Shown here: positions 9,297 to 61,314 of the stretch, one piece after another
How positions within the stretch are numbered: the stretch's first letter is position 1
How the letters are laid out: each line of letters starts with the position of its first letter
Assembly (NCBI GenBank): GCA_029531795.1
Contig: JAPEIS010000006.1
Span: 868,001 to 932,000, forward strand
DNA: 64,000 bases
Origin: Sclerotinia nivalis
Taxonomy: Eukaryota > Ascomycota > Leotiomycetes > Helotiales > Sclerotiniaceae
Direction of reading: 5' to 3'
Position numbers and translations under genes: made by a program
Notes under the pieces: model-generated
Seen by the model: only the letters and a program-made list of their open reading frames with translations
Told to the model about the DNA's origin: nothing
The model's database searches: none

Positions 9297-11948
9297 ATGT
9301 TCGGTCTAGGATCTGCAGGTATGGGCTCAAATAATTACCGCCCCTCATCCAAGAGGAGGATGTCTAAAAAAGACAATGCCCCGCCAACGGATAAACACTT
9401 AACGTACCCGCCGGTCGAAAGCTTCGAGCCAGCCATTGATGGACCCCCATCACCTCAAGGTATACGCGCATACACTGAGCAGATGAGAAGGGGCTCGGCG
9501 TTTGTCCCCAAATCGACTACCCCTTCATTCACCTCAGCTTCCTCCTTCCGATCCCGTCAATCCAGTCTCGATTCCTCCAACAGAATCGAATTGCAACGAA
9601 AATCCTCTGGCAGATCAAACGGCAGTAGCATGGCGGCGAAAGATAGACCCGATAGTATAAACCTATTCGGAAAAACGATTTTCTCTCGAAGCAGTAAAAA
9701 GTTTAGGCGTAATCATCCTTCAATGGGAGGGTCTTCAACATCGCTCGCGAGTGGTGCTGGAGAGAGGGAACGTAACGATGCATCTAGTCGCAGTCCACCA
9801 CCTGTTAGTTACCGTGCTCGAAAGAGCACCATCTCTGGACCATACAACTTTCAACACATTACACACACCCAACAAAATGAACTACCCAACTTGAGGCAAC
9901 TTCCTCCCACGGAATTGGTCTCCGGATTCTCGGCTTTACGGGCATCTCAAGCTCCAACGAACGGGAATCTCAAGGGTATTAGAGCTCGAGATCTAATGTT
10001 TGAGAATTTCTCTTCGGTAGCAATAGACTATGCCCCTGATGTTGACGCGCCTAGAAGTCCCACAAGCCCCAAGAGTCCGTCGTGTCCTGTTACCCCGCAA
10101 AGACAAACCGTACATCGGGCGTCTGTAACACCACCACAAAACAATCCATGGAGACCTATTAATTACTCCATGTCACATGATAATCTTCGATCAGTACCTG
10201 TACGCCCATCACGGTCTCCCGAGTCTCCTCACTGCACGGTCAATCCACCCGCTCGAACATCGTCAAGAGCAGCGTCAAGTTTCTTCAACCATGTTGACCC
10301 CTCTACTGCACTTGATTTTGGTCCATCTTTGAATGCCAACCTCCAGGAATCAGCGCCATTTGATTTTACTCCACAGACACATCCTTCGCCACCCAAATGG
10401 GATAGAAGAGAGTCGGACGTATCTGCCAAGCACCTGTCTCATGCAGTCACGACTCCCGGCGAGGAGGCATGGCCTTTATCTGCACCATTAAATGGAAAGT
10501 TTGGAGTTGATCTTGCGGATGTCCCCGAAGAGGAAGAACATGCTAGGACGCGATCAAGAGAGTCGAGCACAGATGGTGAATTGCGACTTTCAAAATCGGT
10601 CCCTGGTTTGAGGATGAGAGCACTTGAGCAAGCTCCACATATGCCGGATATGCCACCGATCCTAGGAAGACTTGGCTCTGTTGACACCACAAGATTTTTG
10701 AAACGACCCACCTCACCCAAGCTCAGCTTAACCACGGATTCTTGGGAAGACGCGATCGATTTTTGTTACATGGATGAAGCTGGCGAAGATTGGGATTATC
10801 AACATGAGGAAACATCTGAGGAGAACAAACCTGTCATAGCCCAAGCCCCAACGTCACTGACCCAGGTGGAACAGCCCGCTATGGATTTGCATCTTGATAA
10901 CCAACGTCATGTTTCTCCAGGCCGATTCCGTCCATCACTACTGGTCCCTGCACCTTTCGATCTTCCCGCACTTTCTCCACTGTCAAATTTGTCGAGCGCA
11001 TCGTCATTTCTACCCACTCCAACCGATTACTTCCGCCCTAATCACATGCGACTCAATTCCCACGCATCTTCGTTCAAAGAGTCGGATGGGTTCAATCTCT
11101 CCCCAACTCTTCTCATTCCTTCGGATGAATACCCTCTACAGAGCGAACAAGATGCTTTGTTCGACACATATCACCACGACAACGTCCCATCGGCCTCTAT
11201 TTACCCTATGGGTACTTATGAGCAACCTTCTTCACCAATAGACGAAACTCTTTCCAGTACCACCTCTTACCGCTCCTCGGTTTATTCACATAATAGTCTC
11301 AGAAGCAGCACTATTAGTAGCCGCTACAATCGATCCAGTCAAGATTCGGCTCTGCTAGTTTTCCAGGCAGGAAGCATGAGCAAAGCTCATAGAAGTATTG
11401 GATCTGCATCTTCTTTGCCTGATCTTGTCCCTTCTCTGCGCCCAAAACGTGACAGCAGAACACTTGGAGCACTCGCTACGACAACATCTGACCCAGAACT
11501 CGTAACCAAAGTTTCTGGCCTAAAATTTGATGATGACGAGTTATCTCCCTCTGAAGTTGCTGGGTTTCAGAATCTTCCAGTCAATCACGTACGCAAGTCA
11601 ATCAAAAACCCTAATCATTTTGCTCCACCCCCACCCGCCATTTCTACAGCCGTTCCCGATGCAGCGTCTAGCATTCTTAGCCCTGTAGCTGAGAGCTTTA
11701 CCGATTCGCCTCCTACCAGGCCACGTCTGAGATCTGCTCTTTCTCGCGAGCTATATGCTCCTGCCTCGGTCGAGTCCTTCATTTCCAACCACGGACGCAA
11801 GGTCTCTGCGCCAATCATCACTGACAGGAATTTCCAAGATATCGGACCTGGGTCAAGATCCAACACATTGTCTAATACCGCTGCGGCCGGCAAGCGCAGA
11901 GGAAGCTATAATCTTTTCCCTGCCCCTCCCACAACTACACCCAAATAA
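9297..11948 (+). CDS. Large Ser/Pro-rich hypothetical protein (883 aa)
   Basis: This is a single uninterrupted frame of 883 codons starting ATG at 9297; I do not recognise its family. The protein is rich in Ser, Pro, Arg and Thr and has many short SPxSP-like clusters (for example PRSPTSPKSPS, about residues 253-263) of the kind phosphorylated by proline-directed kinases. It looks largely disordered. There is no signal peptide, membrane segment or enzymatic motif. An acidic patch near residues 485-510 (EDAIDFCYMDEAGEDWDY) is the least repetitive part and may be a conserved short module. The N-terminus has a basic stretch (SKRRMSKK). Length, frame integrity and codon choice argue that it is a real gene. 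Its role is unknown; a regulatory or scaffold role is only a guess from composition. Confidence 0.85.
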   Translation: MFGLGSAGMGSNNYRPSSKRRMSKKDNAPPTDKHLTYPPVESFEPAIDGPPSPQGIRAYTEQMRRGSAFVPKSTTPSFTSASSFRSRQSSLDSSNRIELQRKSSGRSNGSSMAAKDRPDSINLFGKTIFSRSSKKFRRNHPSMGGSSTSLASGAGERERNDASSRSPPPVSYRARKSTISGPYNFQHITHTQQNELPNLRQLPPTELVSGFSALRASQAPTNGNLKGIRARDLMFENFSSVAIDYAPDVDAPRSPTSPKSPSCPVTPQRQTVHRASVTPPQNNPWRPINYSMSHDNLRSVPVRPSRSPESPHCTVNPPARTSSRAASSFFNHVDPSTALDFGPSLNANLQESAPFDFTPQTHPSPPKWDRRESDVSAKHLSHAVTTPGEEAWPLSAPLNGKFGVDLADVPEEEEHARTRSRESSTDGELRLSKSVPGLRMRALEQAPHMPDMPPILGRLGSVDTTRFLKRPTSPKLSLTTDSWEDAIDFCYMDEAGEDWDYQHEETSEENKPVIAQAPTSLTQVEQPAMDLHLDNQRHVSPGRFRPSLLVPAPFDLPALSPLSNLSSASSFLPTPTDYFRPNHMRLNSHASSFKESDGFNLSPTLLIPSDEYPLQSEQDALFDTYHHDNVPSASIYPMGTYEQPSSPIDETLSSTTSYRSSVYSHNSLRSSTISSRYNRSSQDSALLVFQAGSMSKAHRSIGSASSLPDLVPSLRPKRDSRTLGALATTTSDPELVTKVSGLKFDDDELSPSEVAGFQNLPVNHVRKSIKNPNHFAPPPPAISTAVPDAASSILSPVAESFTDSPPTRPRLRSALSRELYAPASVESFISNHGRKVSAPIITDRNFQDIGPGSRSNTLSNTAAAGKRRGSYNLFPAPPTTTPK

Positions 11949-13409: not shown

Positions 13410-16400
13410 ATGGGCAAGATGATGGCTACGGACCCAGTTCTGGAATTTTTGAGGTCAGTTCCTCTAAATCGAAGCCTGATCGTTTGCGTAGTAGTGCGGA
13501 TACTCATACGCTCACAGTATGTTTTGGCCGCAGGCGGGACGACGTAGCAATCAAGTCTGGCAATCATACGATCGACAATTTAGGAATCACTATGAAGAAA
13601 TCTTGCGCATCGAGAATGATGAAATCCTTGAGAATATTCTACAAATAAAGTCCCTGCCATGCCTTCGCAAGCAGGTGGAACTGAAGCCTAACAAGGTTAC
13701 TCGCGATTGTTTGACTGAGTTTATTAGAACTTCAGAATCAAGCTTTTTGTGCTTGGAACAATTTAACTCTTCTCTCATTGATATTGTGGGCTTGGAATCT
13801 CGTGTGGCGGCATTAGCTTGAGGCAGCATTTATCAAATCTTGATGGTGAGTACTGTAACTCATGCTTTTATAACTTCCATGTCAATTATCTCCATAATAG
13901 CCTCTTTTAACTAATACTTCAAACTGCTTTCTAGATTGCGAGTGCTTGTAGCTCAAGGTTACTTGGGGACGTTGGGTCAATGCTTCAGATCTTGATATTG
14001 AAGCTTCCTAGGATTGACGACACAAGCATCGACGATCGCCCACCAAACGTGAACCTTGAGACTTCTCTAATAGAGGTATTCGGAGAATTAATATATATAC
14101 TGGCTCACATTCTTGAGGTGTTTAAGTTACAAGAGCACGGTTGATCTACTGTATCAGCTCTTGATGTGTATTGCTAACGAAAGTGCAGACGCGATTTTGG
14201 ACGAAACTAGAGTTTGACTTCGCTCAGAGCCGAGAACGGGTGCGTTACCATTCAAAGGACGTCAAATTGGAAGCAGAAAGCTTGGCTGCAATGCGGAACT
14301 CCAGAGAACAACAGCAAGTGAAAGGACTCTTGACTAAGCTCAATGTATGTGCACCCCTTCATTAATTCTCGATTAAGATTTTCCCATTGTACAACTGAAA
14401 ATCCATTCTTTATTTTTTTATTGGAACTTCCATTGTTGCATGTTTAGATCATTTTCCAACTACTTTATGAATACCTGTTCCAGATTTTGTCAACAGCGCG
14501 TCATTAAGCCCAGGACCTAGGAACTTGGTACCCTCGCAAAACGTGAGAATCTTCCTTGTTTCCACGTACCTGGCACGGCAAATGAGTGATTTTTGGTCCG
14601 GGACAGTCTTCTGAATGAGATCGCCTTGAAGCTAGATCCTCCAAATAGTTTTCAAAGTCCTAATATTCGAAGCATTGCATTGTATGGCACAGGGGGCGCC
14701 GGGAAGACGCAGATAGCTCTGCAATACGCATGTCGTTCACGTGAAAAGTTTGATGCTGTTCTCTGGATATCCGCCGATAAGCATTCAAAAATGGCAGAAA
14801 GTTTCCTTGACGTAAGTTTCCATCTTGGATTGACCTCTAAGGAATCAAAGCACTTGGATGCTACGGAGGCAATGACAATGACGAAGCGTTGGCTATCGGA
14901 TATAAGTATGAATATCTTTTCCATGGAGCCTAGACATTATTGCTGATGATTGTAGGATGCTCATGGCTCTTAATTTTCGACAATGCTGACGACATTGAAG
15001 TACTCAAAAATGTATGGCCTGGAGCTGCCTCTGGTTCAATACTGATAACTACTCGTGATCCGGGAGCGGCGTTGCATTCCGCTTCCCATGGGCTTCGTAT
15101 TTCCTCCTTGGATCCAGAGCAGAGCATTGTTGCATTCGCCAAGATTTTAGGTCAAAAGTTTAGAGATGAAAAGGATCTTGCGATGGCTTCTGAAATTACG
15201 CAGGTTTTAGGTGGCTTACCACTCGCTCTCAATAAAATGGGACGTAAGTAATTCCATCTTCTTTTGATCTTCTAAAAGTTTCTACTGTCGTGAAAGATGT
15301 TCAATGTGTGTGTGGGCATTGAAAAAAATCTTCTCCTAATGCAAGCTTTAATCTCCGATTCCATCAATGAGCATGCCCCTTGTCCATTTCAATCTCACAC
15401 ACTGTCACCCTCTTATTTTTTTCTACTTGCGTATTGACCACCCATTGTCTTGTTCTGTTCTGCACATTGGGATCTAGTAAATTTCAACATAATCTAGAGT
15501 TTCAATTAGAGGGTAAGATAGGGAAGGAAGATGGGAAATTGATGTGACGATTAAAGAACATTTTCCAATTTTTTTCGGGCCTCCTTTATCTCTCACTTCT
15601 CAGCATTTACCGGTTTTAATAATCTGTTAATCCTCTCTATTTCATCCCACTTTTCGCCTCCGTTCCATATCTCTCTCATTTCTTCATCCCGCCTAAAGTA
15701 GCTATTTAATGAATGCTTAGGTTATACCTGGAACATTTATAGGATTTTTCACCAAGCTCTTGGATGTATGTAGACTGACATGCATACTCTAAAGGTTATA
15801 TCAAGCAACGTCGCCTATCTCTCGAAGATTTCCTGAAGGAATACAAAAAGCACCAAAAAAGAATTCGTGGTCAAAAGATGGGCGCCTTTGACTATACAGA
15901 GACTATTGCGACCATCTGGAGTCTATCACTGGAGAGACTTCCAGACAATTCTACCACTTTATTAAGATTAATCTCATTCTTTGACCCGGACGAGATCAGC
16001 GAACCTATGTTAGTTGAAGGTGCCGGGTATCTCGTCTCTTCTCAAGAAGCCACTGAGTTTGAGTTTATTCAAGATGATTTTGAGTGATTTCCCATGTTTC
16101 CACCAAGCTAAAAAGCCTTAAGCTAACTGTTCTCAGTTTCTCCGAAGCACAAGATTCACTATTCAAGTCGGCACTTTTGGACAAAGATCCTACCACTCGT
16201 AACCTTTCTCTCCATAGGCTAATTCAAACCGCCGTCCTACACGATTTGAAAGAGGAAGATAAGCTTCGATATCTTCAAAGAAGCATAAAGTTGATGATCA
16301 AAGTGTTTCCCGCTGCTTGGGCTGATGGTACTGATGGCTATACGTATTCTAAGTGGGACTTATGCCGACGCTGCTTACCCATGTCATTCATTTTAGCAGT

Positions 16401-17555
16401 TATCTTTCGGGCGAGAGCCTTGCAGAAGATATTGTTAGCTCTTTCATTTCGTTGTTACTCAGGTGCTCTTGGTAGGTTGATTACATCCAGATAGAAAAGC
16501 CACTGAACTCGCTAGGTATCTCTATGAAAGCGAAGAGTATGCGGACAGTGCTGGCATGATCGATACTTGTCTTTCACTCGCCTCAAAACATTCTCTTCAG
16601 GAGACTCTGCAGTGCGCTGCGGTTCTCAATGTAAAAGGTCTAATTGAGGTGGATTTAGGAAATTCTTCAACGGCAGTGGGCTACCTTCGAGAAGGTCTGA
16701 GGCTGAAGGAGTCTCTTTGTACCAATCCCGATAATTGGTCGATTGCCGCTAGCATGAGCAATGTTGGTATCGCCTATATGGAAATGGGTAAAGTTGATCT
16801 CTCTATGGAGTATCATAACAAAGCCCTAGAATTTCGCAAGCGTATAAAATATAAGCGGTTAGACAAGTCCTATTTTAATCTAACAGCCCTATTGGTAAGA
16901 ATGGGTAAGCCAGATCAGGCCGAAAATATGTACAGACAAGTACCAGGAATCGGAGGTTTAACAGATGATGATCTATTGAATGATGATAAGCCACGTGCGG
17001 CGAGGTAAAACTCCCCAATTATCTTACACCGATCCTACATGTGGATGGAGTGTCGCTAATCCGCTCAGTGGCTTGCAAGTATTAAGTATCATCAGAGAAC
17101 AACAAGGCCGTATCGAAGATTCGCTAAGTTTGGCAATGAAAGTGCTAGAATTTCGACGAAACAAGTTCGGAGGTCGTTTTAAAACCTGTGGCTCGCTTTG
17201 TAGAGTTGGCCATCTTCTACTTAAGCTTGATCAGCCAACCACTGCAATGCAAACTATTTTTGGGGCACGCTGCCGTATACCTACTGACATTCTCGCTCGT
17301 AGTAAAGTCTTACAAGAATGCGTCTATAATGCTTCCAGTCTGCGGCTTGGGGAAGGCTACTCGGCATTGACACATTTCCGGACATATGTGGCATATGGAA
17401 AACTTGGCAAAGGCAAAGAAGCTGAAAATCATTTGAAAGAAGCTTTATTGGCACGCAAGATAGTTGTCGCTAGGACAAACTACTTGTTGGACTCTGTCTT
17501 CGAAGGTGCCTACGAGAAAGCTTATGAACAGCTTGTAGCCTTTGTCCTCTGGTGA
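13410..17555 (+). pseudogene. NLR-like STAND NTPase with C-terminal TPR repeats, apparently degenerate
   Basis: The reconstruction is exons 13410-13453, 13518-13845, 13935-14117, 14189-14344, about 14484-14905, 14956-15243, 15795-16083, 16137-16462, 16516-17004 and 17069-17555; most joins keep frame. The order is an N-terminal helical region, then an NB-ARC-type NTPase with Walker A GTGGAGKTQIA (14686-14718), Walker B LLIFDNADD (about 14968-14994) and the GLPLAL motif (about 15210-15228), a winged-helix-like linker, then TPRs from about 16520 to the end. Fungal STAND proteins of this type act as intracellular sensors in non-self recognition or regulated cell death. Lesions: TGA at 13819-13821, TGA at 14587-14589 (context NE*FLVRDSLL, where CGA is likely ancestral), unclear splicing near 14484-14530, and a one-base frameshift near 16372 between WDLC and LLTHV. 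One intron is 551 bp, ten times the rest. A GC-AG intron may exist near 17251-17304. Some breaks could be assembly errors, but their number favours a pseudogene. Confidence 0.75.
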
Positions 17556-52854: not shown

Positions 52855-55746
52855 TTTGATGTCTCCGAAGTCGAATTCCTCGAGGCCGAGGGTTCTTTCG
52901 CGATGGCAATGGGCAAGGCCGGTTGGTTAGCTCCAGTGCCTCTGAAAAATACAAAGGGTGCAATAGGTGGAAATTGTAACTTTGGGAGCAATGATTTAAT
53001 TGATTTTGGTACAGAAGTACTATCTCCATTATCTTCTGGTGCTTCTGCTCGAGCCATGTTGATACTGCCTAGGCGGTCAAGAGCCAAGCTTTGCTGATTG
53101 GAGGCTACCCGAGACACAAGTTGGACTCAGATCTAGATGGGGTGGGGGATGATTAATATGAGAACAAAAATGGATTATCAAAGTAGGTATGGAGTAACTG
53201 ATTATTCACTGCCTGCTACAGACATTGATTTGATTGTGATATAAAGATATGTTGTAGTCCAAGATGTTCAGATACGTGTATTCACAGGATTGAGATAGCT
53301 TGCTTTAGCCTTATGTATTTTTGGCTAATTATTTCCTATTGACTTGATGCTAAGATGAGTATATCGCTACTATTCGGATTCGGATTGTAACAATCGATGA
53401 ATTTCAGTAATGAATATGTTCAAATTGGAGTAGTCTAACATTCAGTTGAACATGGTACTCAATGACGGTATTGCAAGGGCATTGGATAACTTGACCAAAT
53501 TCGCTCGTAGTTGATGAGATAATCATAAAGTAGATTTAAAAGATTTGAATGCAAAAAGTCACAATCTGAATACTACATGGGAACCTTAGGATCTCAAGAT
53601 TACAGTATCAATATAAATAATATGAAGCCAGAATTGCACATCGAAACCCAATCATTCGAAGACCAGTGGAAAACTGGGTAGGTGATGTTGGATGTCACGT
53701 GCCCACGTGTAATGAATCATAGAGCTGTGTAAACAGAAGAACTGTTTGACTACTTTACGATCCAGGTTTTGAAGGTTCTAAAGGCTCTACAATATTAGTG
53801 ATCGAGAGTCTGAATGATAAACTCTAAGTATGCAATAAAGTCCTAAGTGGTCGAATCTGACAGGCGTACTATTTAAAAGTCGGATGAAAGAATCTTCTAC
53901 CAACCTTCTAGAGAGACTTTTGAGGATCCATCCCGTGCACTTTCTATTCACTCCACCACTCCACACAACTCATGACTCTATGTAACTTGCATAACTTCAC
54001 ACGGGAGCCAGGCACGTAAGTCCGTTCATCCGTTCGTCAAACAAAGGGGTTTTTGGTGGCACACCAATCGCATCTATGTCCGAAAGCACAGGAGCGGAGC
54101 TGTCTTTGTCCGTACCCGATGTCTAGCGTAGGCTTTACGACCCATTTATCTAATGGGGTAAGGTGAGACAGGGGCGTTTGTCTTAACATTTGATATTCTA
54201 GAAAGGGAGCTCGCTACGAGGATAGTAGGTACGAGTACGCAGTAGATTGGCTACTATGGAATATATTGAAGAGAGCTGATTTGATGATATTGGGACCGAC
54301 TGTGAGATAGGGACAGTGATGATTAGCTTTTGAGCTTGAGATGGGGCTGGAAAATGATGAATGTGGTGACCCTGCAAAGACGAGCGGGTGAATTCGGTGC
54401 GATACCAGTAATGAGCTTATCCCTTTGTCGCATTTGCTGCAAAAGAATGTGACCTTAACGATCTGGACCATTAAGAAGTATTACAATTTTGAGTCATACC
54501 GATTGCATGAGTATTTTTTTTTCAAGTAGTGGTCATGTTTGTGTTAGCATAAAAAGCCATCTGAGGAATGGATTACGTTGACACGGGAATGAAATGGAGG
54601 AGCAAATCATAGAAACGGGGATGGTTAGTGATTGGGAGATGGTAAGAATTCGTTCTTTGATATTCCAGATGATTTCAAGCCACCAATAGTATAAGTATAG
54701 TATTGAATGTTAAGACTTTTCCTATTAGCCGGATATAATCATGAATGCATCCATATCTTTTAGCTGTCAAGTTTGGCTGGCTCAGCACGGGTCAAGCTTT
54801 TGATAGTCTGAGCAAGCTTTTGATCTGAGCAATCCGAAGAACCTTGTATTTTTTTCAAAGAAACAGATACGATGGATATACGAGAGGAATACGAGGAAAG
54901 CGAAACATAGATAGCATAAAATGGTGGCGAACGGAGACGATCAGATAATGATAAGATATTAAAATCTAATTTTATCATTTTATCATTGGTGAGATAAAAA
55001 GACATAAAAGATTCCAAGAACCCAAGAACCTTTCTTCAAGATCATCTTCGACTAATAATACTGGCAATGGTAGGTAGTTTCTACGAAATACGTGCAAAGC
55101 AAAAGTAGTCCAGTACACGATCGGTCGAGTACTTCATAGATGCGATTTGATATTCACTGGAGATCTGCTAGATACGTTTAGACCCGACTAATGGCTAACG
55201 GAAGCGACACAATTAAGATCCTAGGCAAGTTCACGTAGATTTACTAGGTAACTTTATAATCCTTGCCACCGAACTAGTCATCATAAATCCATCGGGAATT
55301 GCAACCTTCCGCATATCGGGATTTGTGGTACCCGTTTGAAGTTATGAAAAGTCTCCATCTCCCAACGTAAGTAAATAAGTAAATAAATAAGTAAATAAAT
55401 AAATAAGTAATCTACTTATCTCTTTCTTTTCAAATCCTCTTTTTAACGTACCTTACGTGATTATTTACTAAACATCCTCTTAATAATTCTTTACATACAA
55501 ACACGTTCATACTTCTAATTATATTATCAAACTCTATCAAGTTTTCCCAATACAAGACTCAAAAGACCGAACGTCATTAATTCTCACTCTGCTTAGTGAC
55601 AGTACGAAAGAAAAAGTTGCCACAAGCAGATATTACCGCCGCATACAGTACTTTAAAATACATACATCTCCAGCCAAGTTTCTATCGATTTGTTGCAGAT
55701 ATTGCCCACTTTTACGAATCCTCAATTCTTATCGAGGCCGCCAATC
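52855..55746. other. Divergent intergenic region between Arp8 and the ABC exporter
   Basis: A 2.9-kb spacer with no gene I can support; the frames at 52645-53117 are shadows of Arp8 or of its promoter. It must contain both promoters. Next to the ABC gene are a GTAA/AAAT microsatellite (55365-55412) and a CT/AT-rich leader. Efflux-pump genes often have large regulatory regions, which would fit, but I identify no specific factor site. Confidence 0.5.
55365..55412. repeat. AAAT/GTAA microsatellite
   Basis: About eleven consecutive 4-base units of AAGT or AAAT type. It lies roughly 340 bases before the exporter's start codon. Confidence 0.8.
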
Positions 55747-60570: not shown

Positions 60571-61314
60571 GTTCAATGAAATATCACGATTGTGCGCTGG
60601 CATTTCGCAAGCGGATTCGATACGCCGGAACAGATAATTCTTATTTCAATATCATAGCGTTATTGGTGCGAATGAAGAAGCCGGAGGAGGCGGAGGAAAT
60701 GTATGGCCGCATACCAGGCATGAGGGCCATGGCGGAGGACGAGGTGTTGGATACAGACAGACCACGTCTCGCTAGGTATGTTTAAATTACTCTAGTTTTA
60801 TCGTACGATCTTCATGGAGACTGATCAATCCAGCGCATTATAGGTGATGAATATGATTAGAGAGCAACAGGGACGACTCGGAGACTCGTTGAATTTAGCA
60901 GTCAAGGTGCTCTCGACCTTCGAAGATTTGGGTTCAGTAAAGGGTTCAGACTGTGTGATTCGCTTTGCAGAATTGGAAATCTTCATCTTGAGCTTAAGAA
61001 TCCTTCTGCTGCAATGTGAGTGCCTCTCAAATAAATAGTTTAGAAAAACTAACCTTATTATATAGGGCACATTTGCAAGAATGTATCTCCGTCGCTGGTG
61101 GCCTATCGCTCGGGAAAGGATACAGGCTCTTGGCACACTACAGACCTTTTGTCGCGTGCAGTTAGCTAGCGAAAGGAGAAGAGGAGAAGAGGCTTTGGCT
61201 TTGGCTGCACGCAAGATAGTTCTGAGGAGTAATAACAATACCGAGGATTCTAGTCTGAGGGATACTGATCGGGAAGCCCACGAGATAGTCATTGCTTTTT
61301 TTTTTCTTTGGTAA
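60571..61314 (+). pseudogene. TPR-domain fragment of an NLR-like gene, paralogue of the 13.4-17.6 kb relic
   Basis: This matches only the C-terminal end of the NLR-like gene. SMKYHDCALAFRKRIRY, SYFNIIALLVRMKKPEEAEE and YGRIPG align to SMEYHNKALEFRKRIKY, SYFNLTALLVRMGKPDQAEN and YRQVPG; the intron positions also match (60776-60833 and 61016-61065). Homology begins abruptly at about 60571, and the NTPase part is missing. Decay is clear: TAG at 60841-60843 stands where the paralogue has CAA (Gln) just before IREQQGR; a frameshift occurs near 60930; a TAG and frame change lie near 61163. The end ARKIV...IAFFFLW-stop aligns with the paralogue's ARKIV...VAFVLW-stop. It has no start codon of its own and is not expected to be functional. 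Confidence 0.8.

What the first reader, a model, noticed from the sequence alone, without database searches (positions are those of the whole stretch)
13410..17555. NLR-like STAND/TPR gene with several nonsense codons, some of C-to-T type
The reconstructed protein keeps Walker A, Walker B and GLPLAL motifs and TPRs, yet in-frame TGA codons occur at 13819-13821 and 14587-14589, and a one-base shift near 16372 breaks the frame between the linker and the TPRs. In both TGA cases CGA is a plausible ancestral codon. This fits inactivation by repeat-induced point mutation of a duplicated self/non-self sensor.
Basis: partly seen in the sequence, partly recalled or inferred. Interest (0 to 1): 0.75.

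Follow-up and report, generated by a model that had tools for sequence, protein, structure and literature searches.

The report
Decayed fungal immune-receptor gene (pseudogene)

Summary
Window 13410-17555 (+) carries an 11-exon NB-ARC/DUF7779/TPR gene of Sclerotinia nivalis. Its frame is broken by TGA 13819-13821, TGA 14587-14589 and a net one-base loss at 16378-16380. The stops align with Trp in 7 of 7 and Arg in 8 of 8 covering relatives; 8 of 8 run on through the frame break. The deposited model (OCU04_005970) is reproduced exactly only by starting after Walker A and using a 19-nt 'intron'. [quoted passage not shown] sclerotiorum, and 9 of 26 lineage-specific changes could be C:G to T:A, 2 of them CpA. 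Faster change than in Stromatinia cepivora (26 against 8) fits relaxed constraint, without a control gene. An older relic of the family's TPR end lies at 60573-61314, 64-71% identical. Verdict: a unitary NLR pseudogene decaying by ordinary mutation; modest interest.

The parts
13410..17555 (+). NB-ARC/DUF7779/TPR gene of the NLR (STAND) class, 11-exon conceptual model, disrupted
   Evidence: one frame from ATG 13410 to the frame break (apart from two stops), then one frame to stop 17553-17555; homologues at E=0
13410..14344 (+). N-terminal part (exons 1-4), aligned with the N terminus of complete relatives, some of which carry DUF7708
   Evidence: alignment; DUF7708 reaches E<=0.001 in 5 of 10 aligned proteins, but the window's own N-terminal piece has no Pfam match
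13819..13821 (+). in-frame TGA at a tryptophan column
   Evidence: Trp in 7 of 7 relatives covering the column
14587..14589 (+). in-frame TGA at an arginine column ahead of the P-loop
   Evidence: Arg in 8 of 8 relatives covering the column
14590..15243 (+). exon stretch holding the NB-ARC matches, Walker A encoded from 14686, with intron 14906-14955
   Evidence: Pfam PF00931; Walker A position
15244..15794 (+). 551-nt intron, the longest of the ten (next 176 nt)
   Evidence: no second copy in the genome DNA search
15926..16260 (+). DUF7779, split by intron 16084-16136
   Evidence: PF25000 in two exon pieces
16378..16380 (+). net one-base loss of frame between linker and TPR part
   Evidence: 8 of 8 relatives run straight through; two bases left over between the two frames
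16472..16515 (+). 44-nt intron; the deposited model uses a 19-nt 'intron' 16472-16490 here instead
16516..17555 (+). TPR part and conserved C terminus ending in LW
   Evidence: PF13424, PF13374; alignment
17249..17302 (+). 54-nt intron with a GC donor, retained as 18 extra residues in the deposited model; possibly a fourth lesion
   Evidence: the relic at 60573 has GTGAGT at the same place
60573..61314 (+). older relic of the C-terminal TPR part of a paralogue, with a stop near 61163 and changes of frame
   Evidence: tblastn with P0001, P0003, P0004, P0010 and frame translations; DNA identity 64% over 631 aligned exon bases, 71% over the best 402 columns

Best explanation
A unitary pseudogene. 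In the sequenced S. nivalis strain the single copy of a fungal NLR-type receptor gene (DUF7708-like N terminus, NB-ARC switch, DUF7779, TPR sensor) lost its function and has gathered substitutions, two stop codons and a one-base frame break by ordinary mutation under relaxed constraint. Working relatives are inferred to act as nucleotide-driven switches: the TPR end detects a cue, NB-ARC assembles, and the N-terminal part signals. In this strain, by the model, translation from the native ATG ends after 115 residues. Shown: sequence, lesions, relatives, no close duplicate found, mutation spectrum. Inferred: silence or uselessness of the product, what the receptor sensed, and when it was lost.
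For: Lesions interrupt columns conserved in 7 of 7, 8 of 8 and 8 of 8 covering relatives. The 11-exon model is otherwise continuous. Of frame-keeping GT-AG introns of 40-200 nt that remove the first stop, 0 of 12 have a consensus-like donor; for the second, 3 of 22 do, each deleting conserved sequence. S. nivalis-only amino-acid changes are 26 against 8 S. cepivora-only over 732 shared columns, two-sided binomial p=0.003; 7 of the 26 and 0 of the 8 hit columns identical in the eight other proteins (counted from its listing). Random changes in this coding sequence give 17.7 missense per nonsense; the compared stretch shows 26 missense and 1 nonsense. The deposited model needs a 19-nt intron and drops Walker A.
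Against: No transcript data. One assembly: the one-base break could be a sequencing error, although the two stops are substitutions and several other genes in the window have long open frames. The 26:8 rate test has no control gene, because S. cepivora's flanking orthologue is not listed apart. Only two stops and one frame break mean that loss is recent or that part of the protein could still be made. GC donors can be functional (recalled), so the fourth candidate lesion is weak. The Sclerotiniaceae relatives also have odd models (P0001 lacks the N terminus, P0003 skips two stretches), so a complete intact orthologue within that family is not shown.
Confidence: 0.85

Rival explanations
1. Inactivation by repeat-induced point mutation after duplication.
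For: A related relic does exist 43 kb away on the same contig; the genome has 8 matches to the DNA-methylase family (none assigned to the RIP enzyme RID); RIP-killed NLR pseudogenes are documented in Podospora (PMC1805685, passages); 9 of 26 changes could be C:G to T:A.
Against: DNA search of the assembly finds only the locus itself. The relic is 64-71% identical, below the 80% that PMC1805685 gives as the limit. Locus TpA/ApT 0.76 and (CpA+TpG)/(ApC+GpT) 1.36 against flank windows of 0.70 (sd 0.05) and 1.33 (sd 0.06), n=103. Stops not in CpA or CpT context. Of 26 changes 11 are transversions only, 6 are T:A to C:G, and 2 could be CpA.
Confidence: 0.04
2. A null allele of a locus that is still polymorphic in the species: some strains keep a working receptor and others, such as this one, carry the broken form, as reported for het-v in Neurospora. 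(Compatible with the best explanation for this strain.)
For: Few lesions, so recent loss; patchy presence among annotated Sclerotiniaceae proteins; precedent in PMC9262711 (passages).
Against: Only one strain was available; no allele data.
Confidence: 0.25
3. A shortened product is still made and used, for example from ATG 14791 as in the deposited model, acting as an altered or dominant-negative receptor.
For: The frame from 14590 to the break at 16378 is open after splicing; the deposited model is predicted there.
Against: It would lack Walker A and the N terminus and would leave frame before the TPRs; more change at invariant columns than in S. cepivora argues against constraint.
Confidence: 0.06
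4. Assembly or base-calling errors in a working gene.
For: The frame break is a single base; one assembly only.
Against: Three separate lesions plus a GC donor in one gene, while long frames elsewhere in the window are open; two of the lesions are substitutions.
Confidence: 0.05

Closest known systems
Fungal NLR proteins of NB-ARC/TPR architecture (for example Aspergillus P0004-P0006, 951-968 aa)
   Same: NB-ARC, DUF7779 and TPR in the same order, 37-39% identical over 91-98% of the query
   Different: The window copy is disrupted; its N terminus has no Pfam match, where P0004 has DUF7708
Stromatinia cepivora EAF04_000704 (P0001) and Monilinia vaccinii-corymbosi DSL72_008039 (P0003)
   Same: Closest relatives, 90% and 74% identical; DSL72_008039 and DSL72_008047, the orthologue of the window's flanking gene, are listed on contigs of the same length (3,356,619) with close tag numbers, so probably neighbours
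   Different: Neither has the second stop or the frame break; P0001's model starts downstream of the first stop; P0003 has Trp there
het-v (het-Vb) pseudogenes of Neurospora (PMC9262711, passages seen)
   Same: Independent premature stops, presence/absence turnover, and annotators' unsupported introns that step over the lesions
   Different: A different gene; population data exist there and not here
Podospora NWDp1/NWDp2 pseudogenes (PMC1805685, passages seen)
   Same: NLR-family pseudogenes with nonsense codons
   Different: Those show strong RIP skew and are about 80% identical to each other; this locus has neither skew nor such a partner

Membership tests
Fungal NLR of NB-ARC/TPR type | NB-ARC with P-loop | tested here: met
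   PF00931 E=1.2e-18 on the read-through; Walker A GTGGAGKT
Fungal NLR of NB-ARC/TPR type | C-terminal repeats (TPR) | tested here: met
   PF13424 and PF13374
Fungal NLR of NB-ARC/TPR type | recognised N-terminal effector domain | tested here: inconclusive
   no Pfam match for the window's N terminus; DUF7708 in 5 of 10 aligned proteins
Fungal NLR of NB-ARC/TPR type | continuous open frame | tested here: not met
   two stops and one frame break: a pseudogene of the family, not a working member
RIP-inactivated pseudogene | a duplicate above about 80% identity | tested here: not met
   only self in the DNA search; relic 64-71%
RIP-inactivated pseudogene | skewed RIP indices | tested here: not met
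RIP-inactivated pseudogene | excess C:G to T:A at CpA (or CpT in Sclerotiniaceae) | tested here: not met
   inferred from proteins of relatives and the window's codons; contexts from PMC4352252
RIP-inactivated pseudogene | RID-type methyltransferase in the genome | tested here: inconclusive
   8 matches to PF00145, not assigned to subclasses
Unitary pseudogene | no working copy elsewhere in the genome | tested here: met
   matches outside the locus and the relic are 35% identical or less; six-frame search in which only the best candidates are scored
Heterokaryon-incompatibility (het) locus | allele-dependent incompatibility | not testable with these tools
   needs strains and fusion tests

The most novel reading that the evidence does not exclude
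This strain carries a null allele of an allorecognition or antiviral NLR that still segregates in S. nivalis and is being lost repeatedly across Sclerotiniaceae: a relic in the same 64 kb, odd models in two relatives, and no orthologue seen among annotated Botrytis or S. sclerotiorum proteins. The locus would then be a turnover hotspot.
Probability: 0.2. Interest if true: 0.45.

Novelty: new member of a known kind. Interest (0 to 1): 0.22.

Why it matters
It shows that a deposited NLR protein (OCU04_005970) is an annotation artefact of a pseudogene, which matters for counts of fungal NLR repertoires, and it removes a supposed RIP case. If strains differ in the lesions, the locus would be a natural test of NLR turnover in a sclerotial plant pathogen.

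Tried and rejected
Rejected: CGA as the ancestor of both stops (the first is a Trp column). RIP (no template found, no index skew, contexts and spectrum that do not fit). Splicing out of the stops. Treating 14142 TGA, 16473 TAG and the stops just after 17004 as lesions: each lies in an intron whose removal restores alignment to relatives. The 14140-14183 intron has a weak donor (GTTGAT) and a branch site close to its end, so a lesion there cannot be excluded. A protein search with the TPR part alone, meant to find shorter models, returned nothing at E<=0.001 among 1971 candidates. Short remnants annotated in Botrytis or S. sclerotiorum were therefore not seen, but candidates were limited by length, so this is weak. 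A control gene for the rate test failed because S. cepivora's flanking orthologue is not separately listed (120 of 268 hits shown). No genome paper for S. nivalis is among the 10 of 26 papers listed by one search. Three further literature searches gave the papers cited. PMC12258605 was also looked at (passages): its authors dropped NLR candidates with frameshifts or premature stops and found no strong relation between NLR number and RIP. The structure-prediction and fold tools were not used: domain identity was not in doubt. The other NB-ARC/DUF7779 loci (C4, C8, C9) were looked at only coarsely.

Full report
Identity of the genome. The window is G000:C6:868001-932000 of a 50.3 Mb assembly. 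Contig C6 is 2,869,516 bases. The protein search lists Sclerotinia nivalis OCU04_005970 (P0002, 675 aa) on a contig of that length, and the same length appears for the window's own flanking protein P0121. P0002 is reproduced letter for letter from the window. The organism is therefore S. nivalis, a plant-infecting relative of S. sclerotiorum (recalled; carrot disease in the abstract listed).

Gene anatomy. With the closest relatives as guide, the locus resolves into 11 exons from ATG 13410 to the stop at 17553-17555. Nine introns are GT-AG and one (17249-17302) is GC-AG; lengths are 44-176 nt plus one of 551 nt. Exon pieces match NB-ARC (within 14590-15243), DUF7779 (15926-16260) and TPR_12/TPR_10 (from 16481) above their curated cut-offs; the TPR matches of the last piece (from 16980) are below theirs. 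The read-through protein matches the three families as a whole. The N terminus has no Pfam match of its own but aligns with relatives in which DUF7708 is recognised; DUF7708 appears in 5 of 10 aligned proteins.

Lesions. In that model the frame is continuous except for three places. TGA 13819-13821 aligns with Trp in 7 of 7 relatives that cover it (P0003, P0004, P0005, P0006, P0010, P0011, P0013). TGA 14587-14589 aligns with Arg in 8 of 8 (those plus P0001). At 16378-16380 the frame moves by a net loss of one base, while 8 of 8 relatives run on as CL(P/R)HV. P0002, being this locus itself, is left out of all three counts; the relatives are 8 that I chose from the 134 hits. Two uncertain places come on top: the GC donor at 17249, where the relic at 60573 has GTGAGT, and the weak donor at 14140.

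Can splicing rescue it? Among frame-keeping GT-AG introns of 40-200 nt, 12 candidates span the first stop and none has a consensus-like donor. 22 span the second and 3 have one (all from 14543), but these would delete the conserved stretch around PCFHVPGT. The deposited model avoids the stops by starting at ATG 14791, downstream of Walker A (encoded from 14686). It avoids the frame break by an intron of 19 nt, less than half the length of any other intron here, and it retains the 54-nt intron. PMC9262711 (passages) describes the same kind of unsupported introns in Neurospora het-v models.

RIP. (1) A duplicate: the DNA search of the assembly with 13410-17555 returns only itself. A protein-level search finds a relic at window 60573-61314, but its DNA identity is 64% over 631 aligned exon bases and 71% over the best 402 columns, under the 80% limit given in PMC1805685 (passages). 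(2) Index skew: TpA/ApT 0.76 and (CpA+TpG)/(ApC+GpT) 1.36 at the locus against 0.70 (sd 0.05) and 1.33 (sd 0.06) in 103 overlapping flank windows. The product index is 1.3 sd above the mean and inside the flank range (maximum 0.80); CA/TA and TG/TA show no clear skew either. (3) Context: S. sclerotiorum transposons show CpA, then CpT, signatures (PMC4352252, passages). The first stop, at a Trp column, cannot come from CGA, and the change falls in a CpC context; the second, if from CGA, is CpG (my reading of the bases printed). (4) Spectrum: of 26 S. nivalis-only amino-acid differences, 11 need a transversion, 6 are T:A to C:G and 9 could be C:G to T:A, 2 of those 9 at CpA. (5) Machinery: the genome has 8 matches to the DNA-methylase family, none assigned to RID, so this is open. 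Predictions 1 to 4 are not met.

Decay. Over 732 columns present in S. nivalis, S. cepivora and M. vaccinii-corymbosi, 568 are identical, 26 are S. nivalis-only, 8 S. cepivora-only, 115 Monilinia-only and 15 differ in all three (binomial 26:8, p=0.003). Seven of the 26 and none of the 8 hit columns identical in the other eight proteins (my count from its listing). Random substitution of this coding sequence with a transition weight of 3 gives 69% missense, 27% synonymous and 3.9% nonsense. The stretch compared holds 26 missense changes and one of the two stops, which is what largely unconstrained change would give. There is no control gene for the branch rate, and the missense count includes the time before loss.

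Distribution. Apart from the locus's own model, relatives over 70% identity were found only in S. cepivora and M. vaccinii-corymbosi, while the neighbouring gene at 9297-11945 has orthologues in Ciborinia, S. borealis, M. fructicola and three Botrytis species. This suggests repeated loss, but pseudogenes that are not annotated cannot be seen in a protein database, and candidate length was limited.

How it would work. By family knowledge (recalled, with the fungal NLR architecture described in PMC9815663, passages), such proteins are STAND switches. Among solved structures P0001's NTPase part matches AfsR and the plant NLR Sr35; its TPR part matches engineered TPR proteins and kinesin light chains. 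Nothing here tells what the receptor sensed. In this strain the first stop ends translation from the native ATG after 115 residues.

Verdict. Confirmed observation; interpretation half right: an inactivated NLR, but not by RIP as far as these tests reach. It is a new member of a known kind (NLR pseudogenes of fungi), of modest interest.

Noticed in passing
window 60573-61314 (+): A second, more decayed relic of the TPR end of the same family, 43 kb downstream, sharing two intron positions with the main locus; tblastn of the window found no NB-ARC or N-terminal part with it.
   Followed up: partly
window 14791-17555: Deposited S. nivalis protein OCU04_005970 rests on a 19-nt intron and a start after Walker A: an annotation artefact.
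   Followed up: yes
window 15244-15794: A 551-nt intron, three times longer than the next in the gene, with no second copy found in the assembly; no origin found.
   Followed up: no
L028 (C4:1639500-1646500), L029 (C9:1135500-1141500), L030 (C8:147500-153500): The other NB-ARC/DUF7779 loci found in the assembly; few in number, intactness examined only coarsely.
   Followed up: partly
P0003 (M. vaccinii-corymbosi) and P0001 (S. cepivora): Their gene models skip or lack N-terminal stretches, which may hide lesions of their own.
   Followed up: no
window 55001-55500: The only one of 254 windows of 500 bases with RIP-like indices (1.15 and 0.73), G+C 0.36, upstream of a long frame that looks like an ABC transporter (by eye, no family search).
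   Followed up: no
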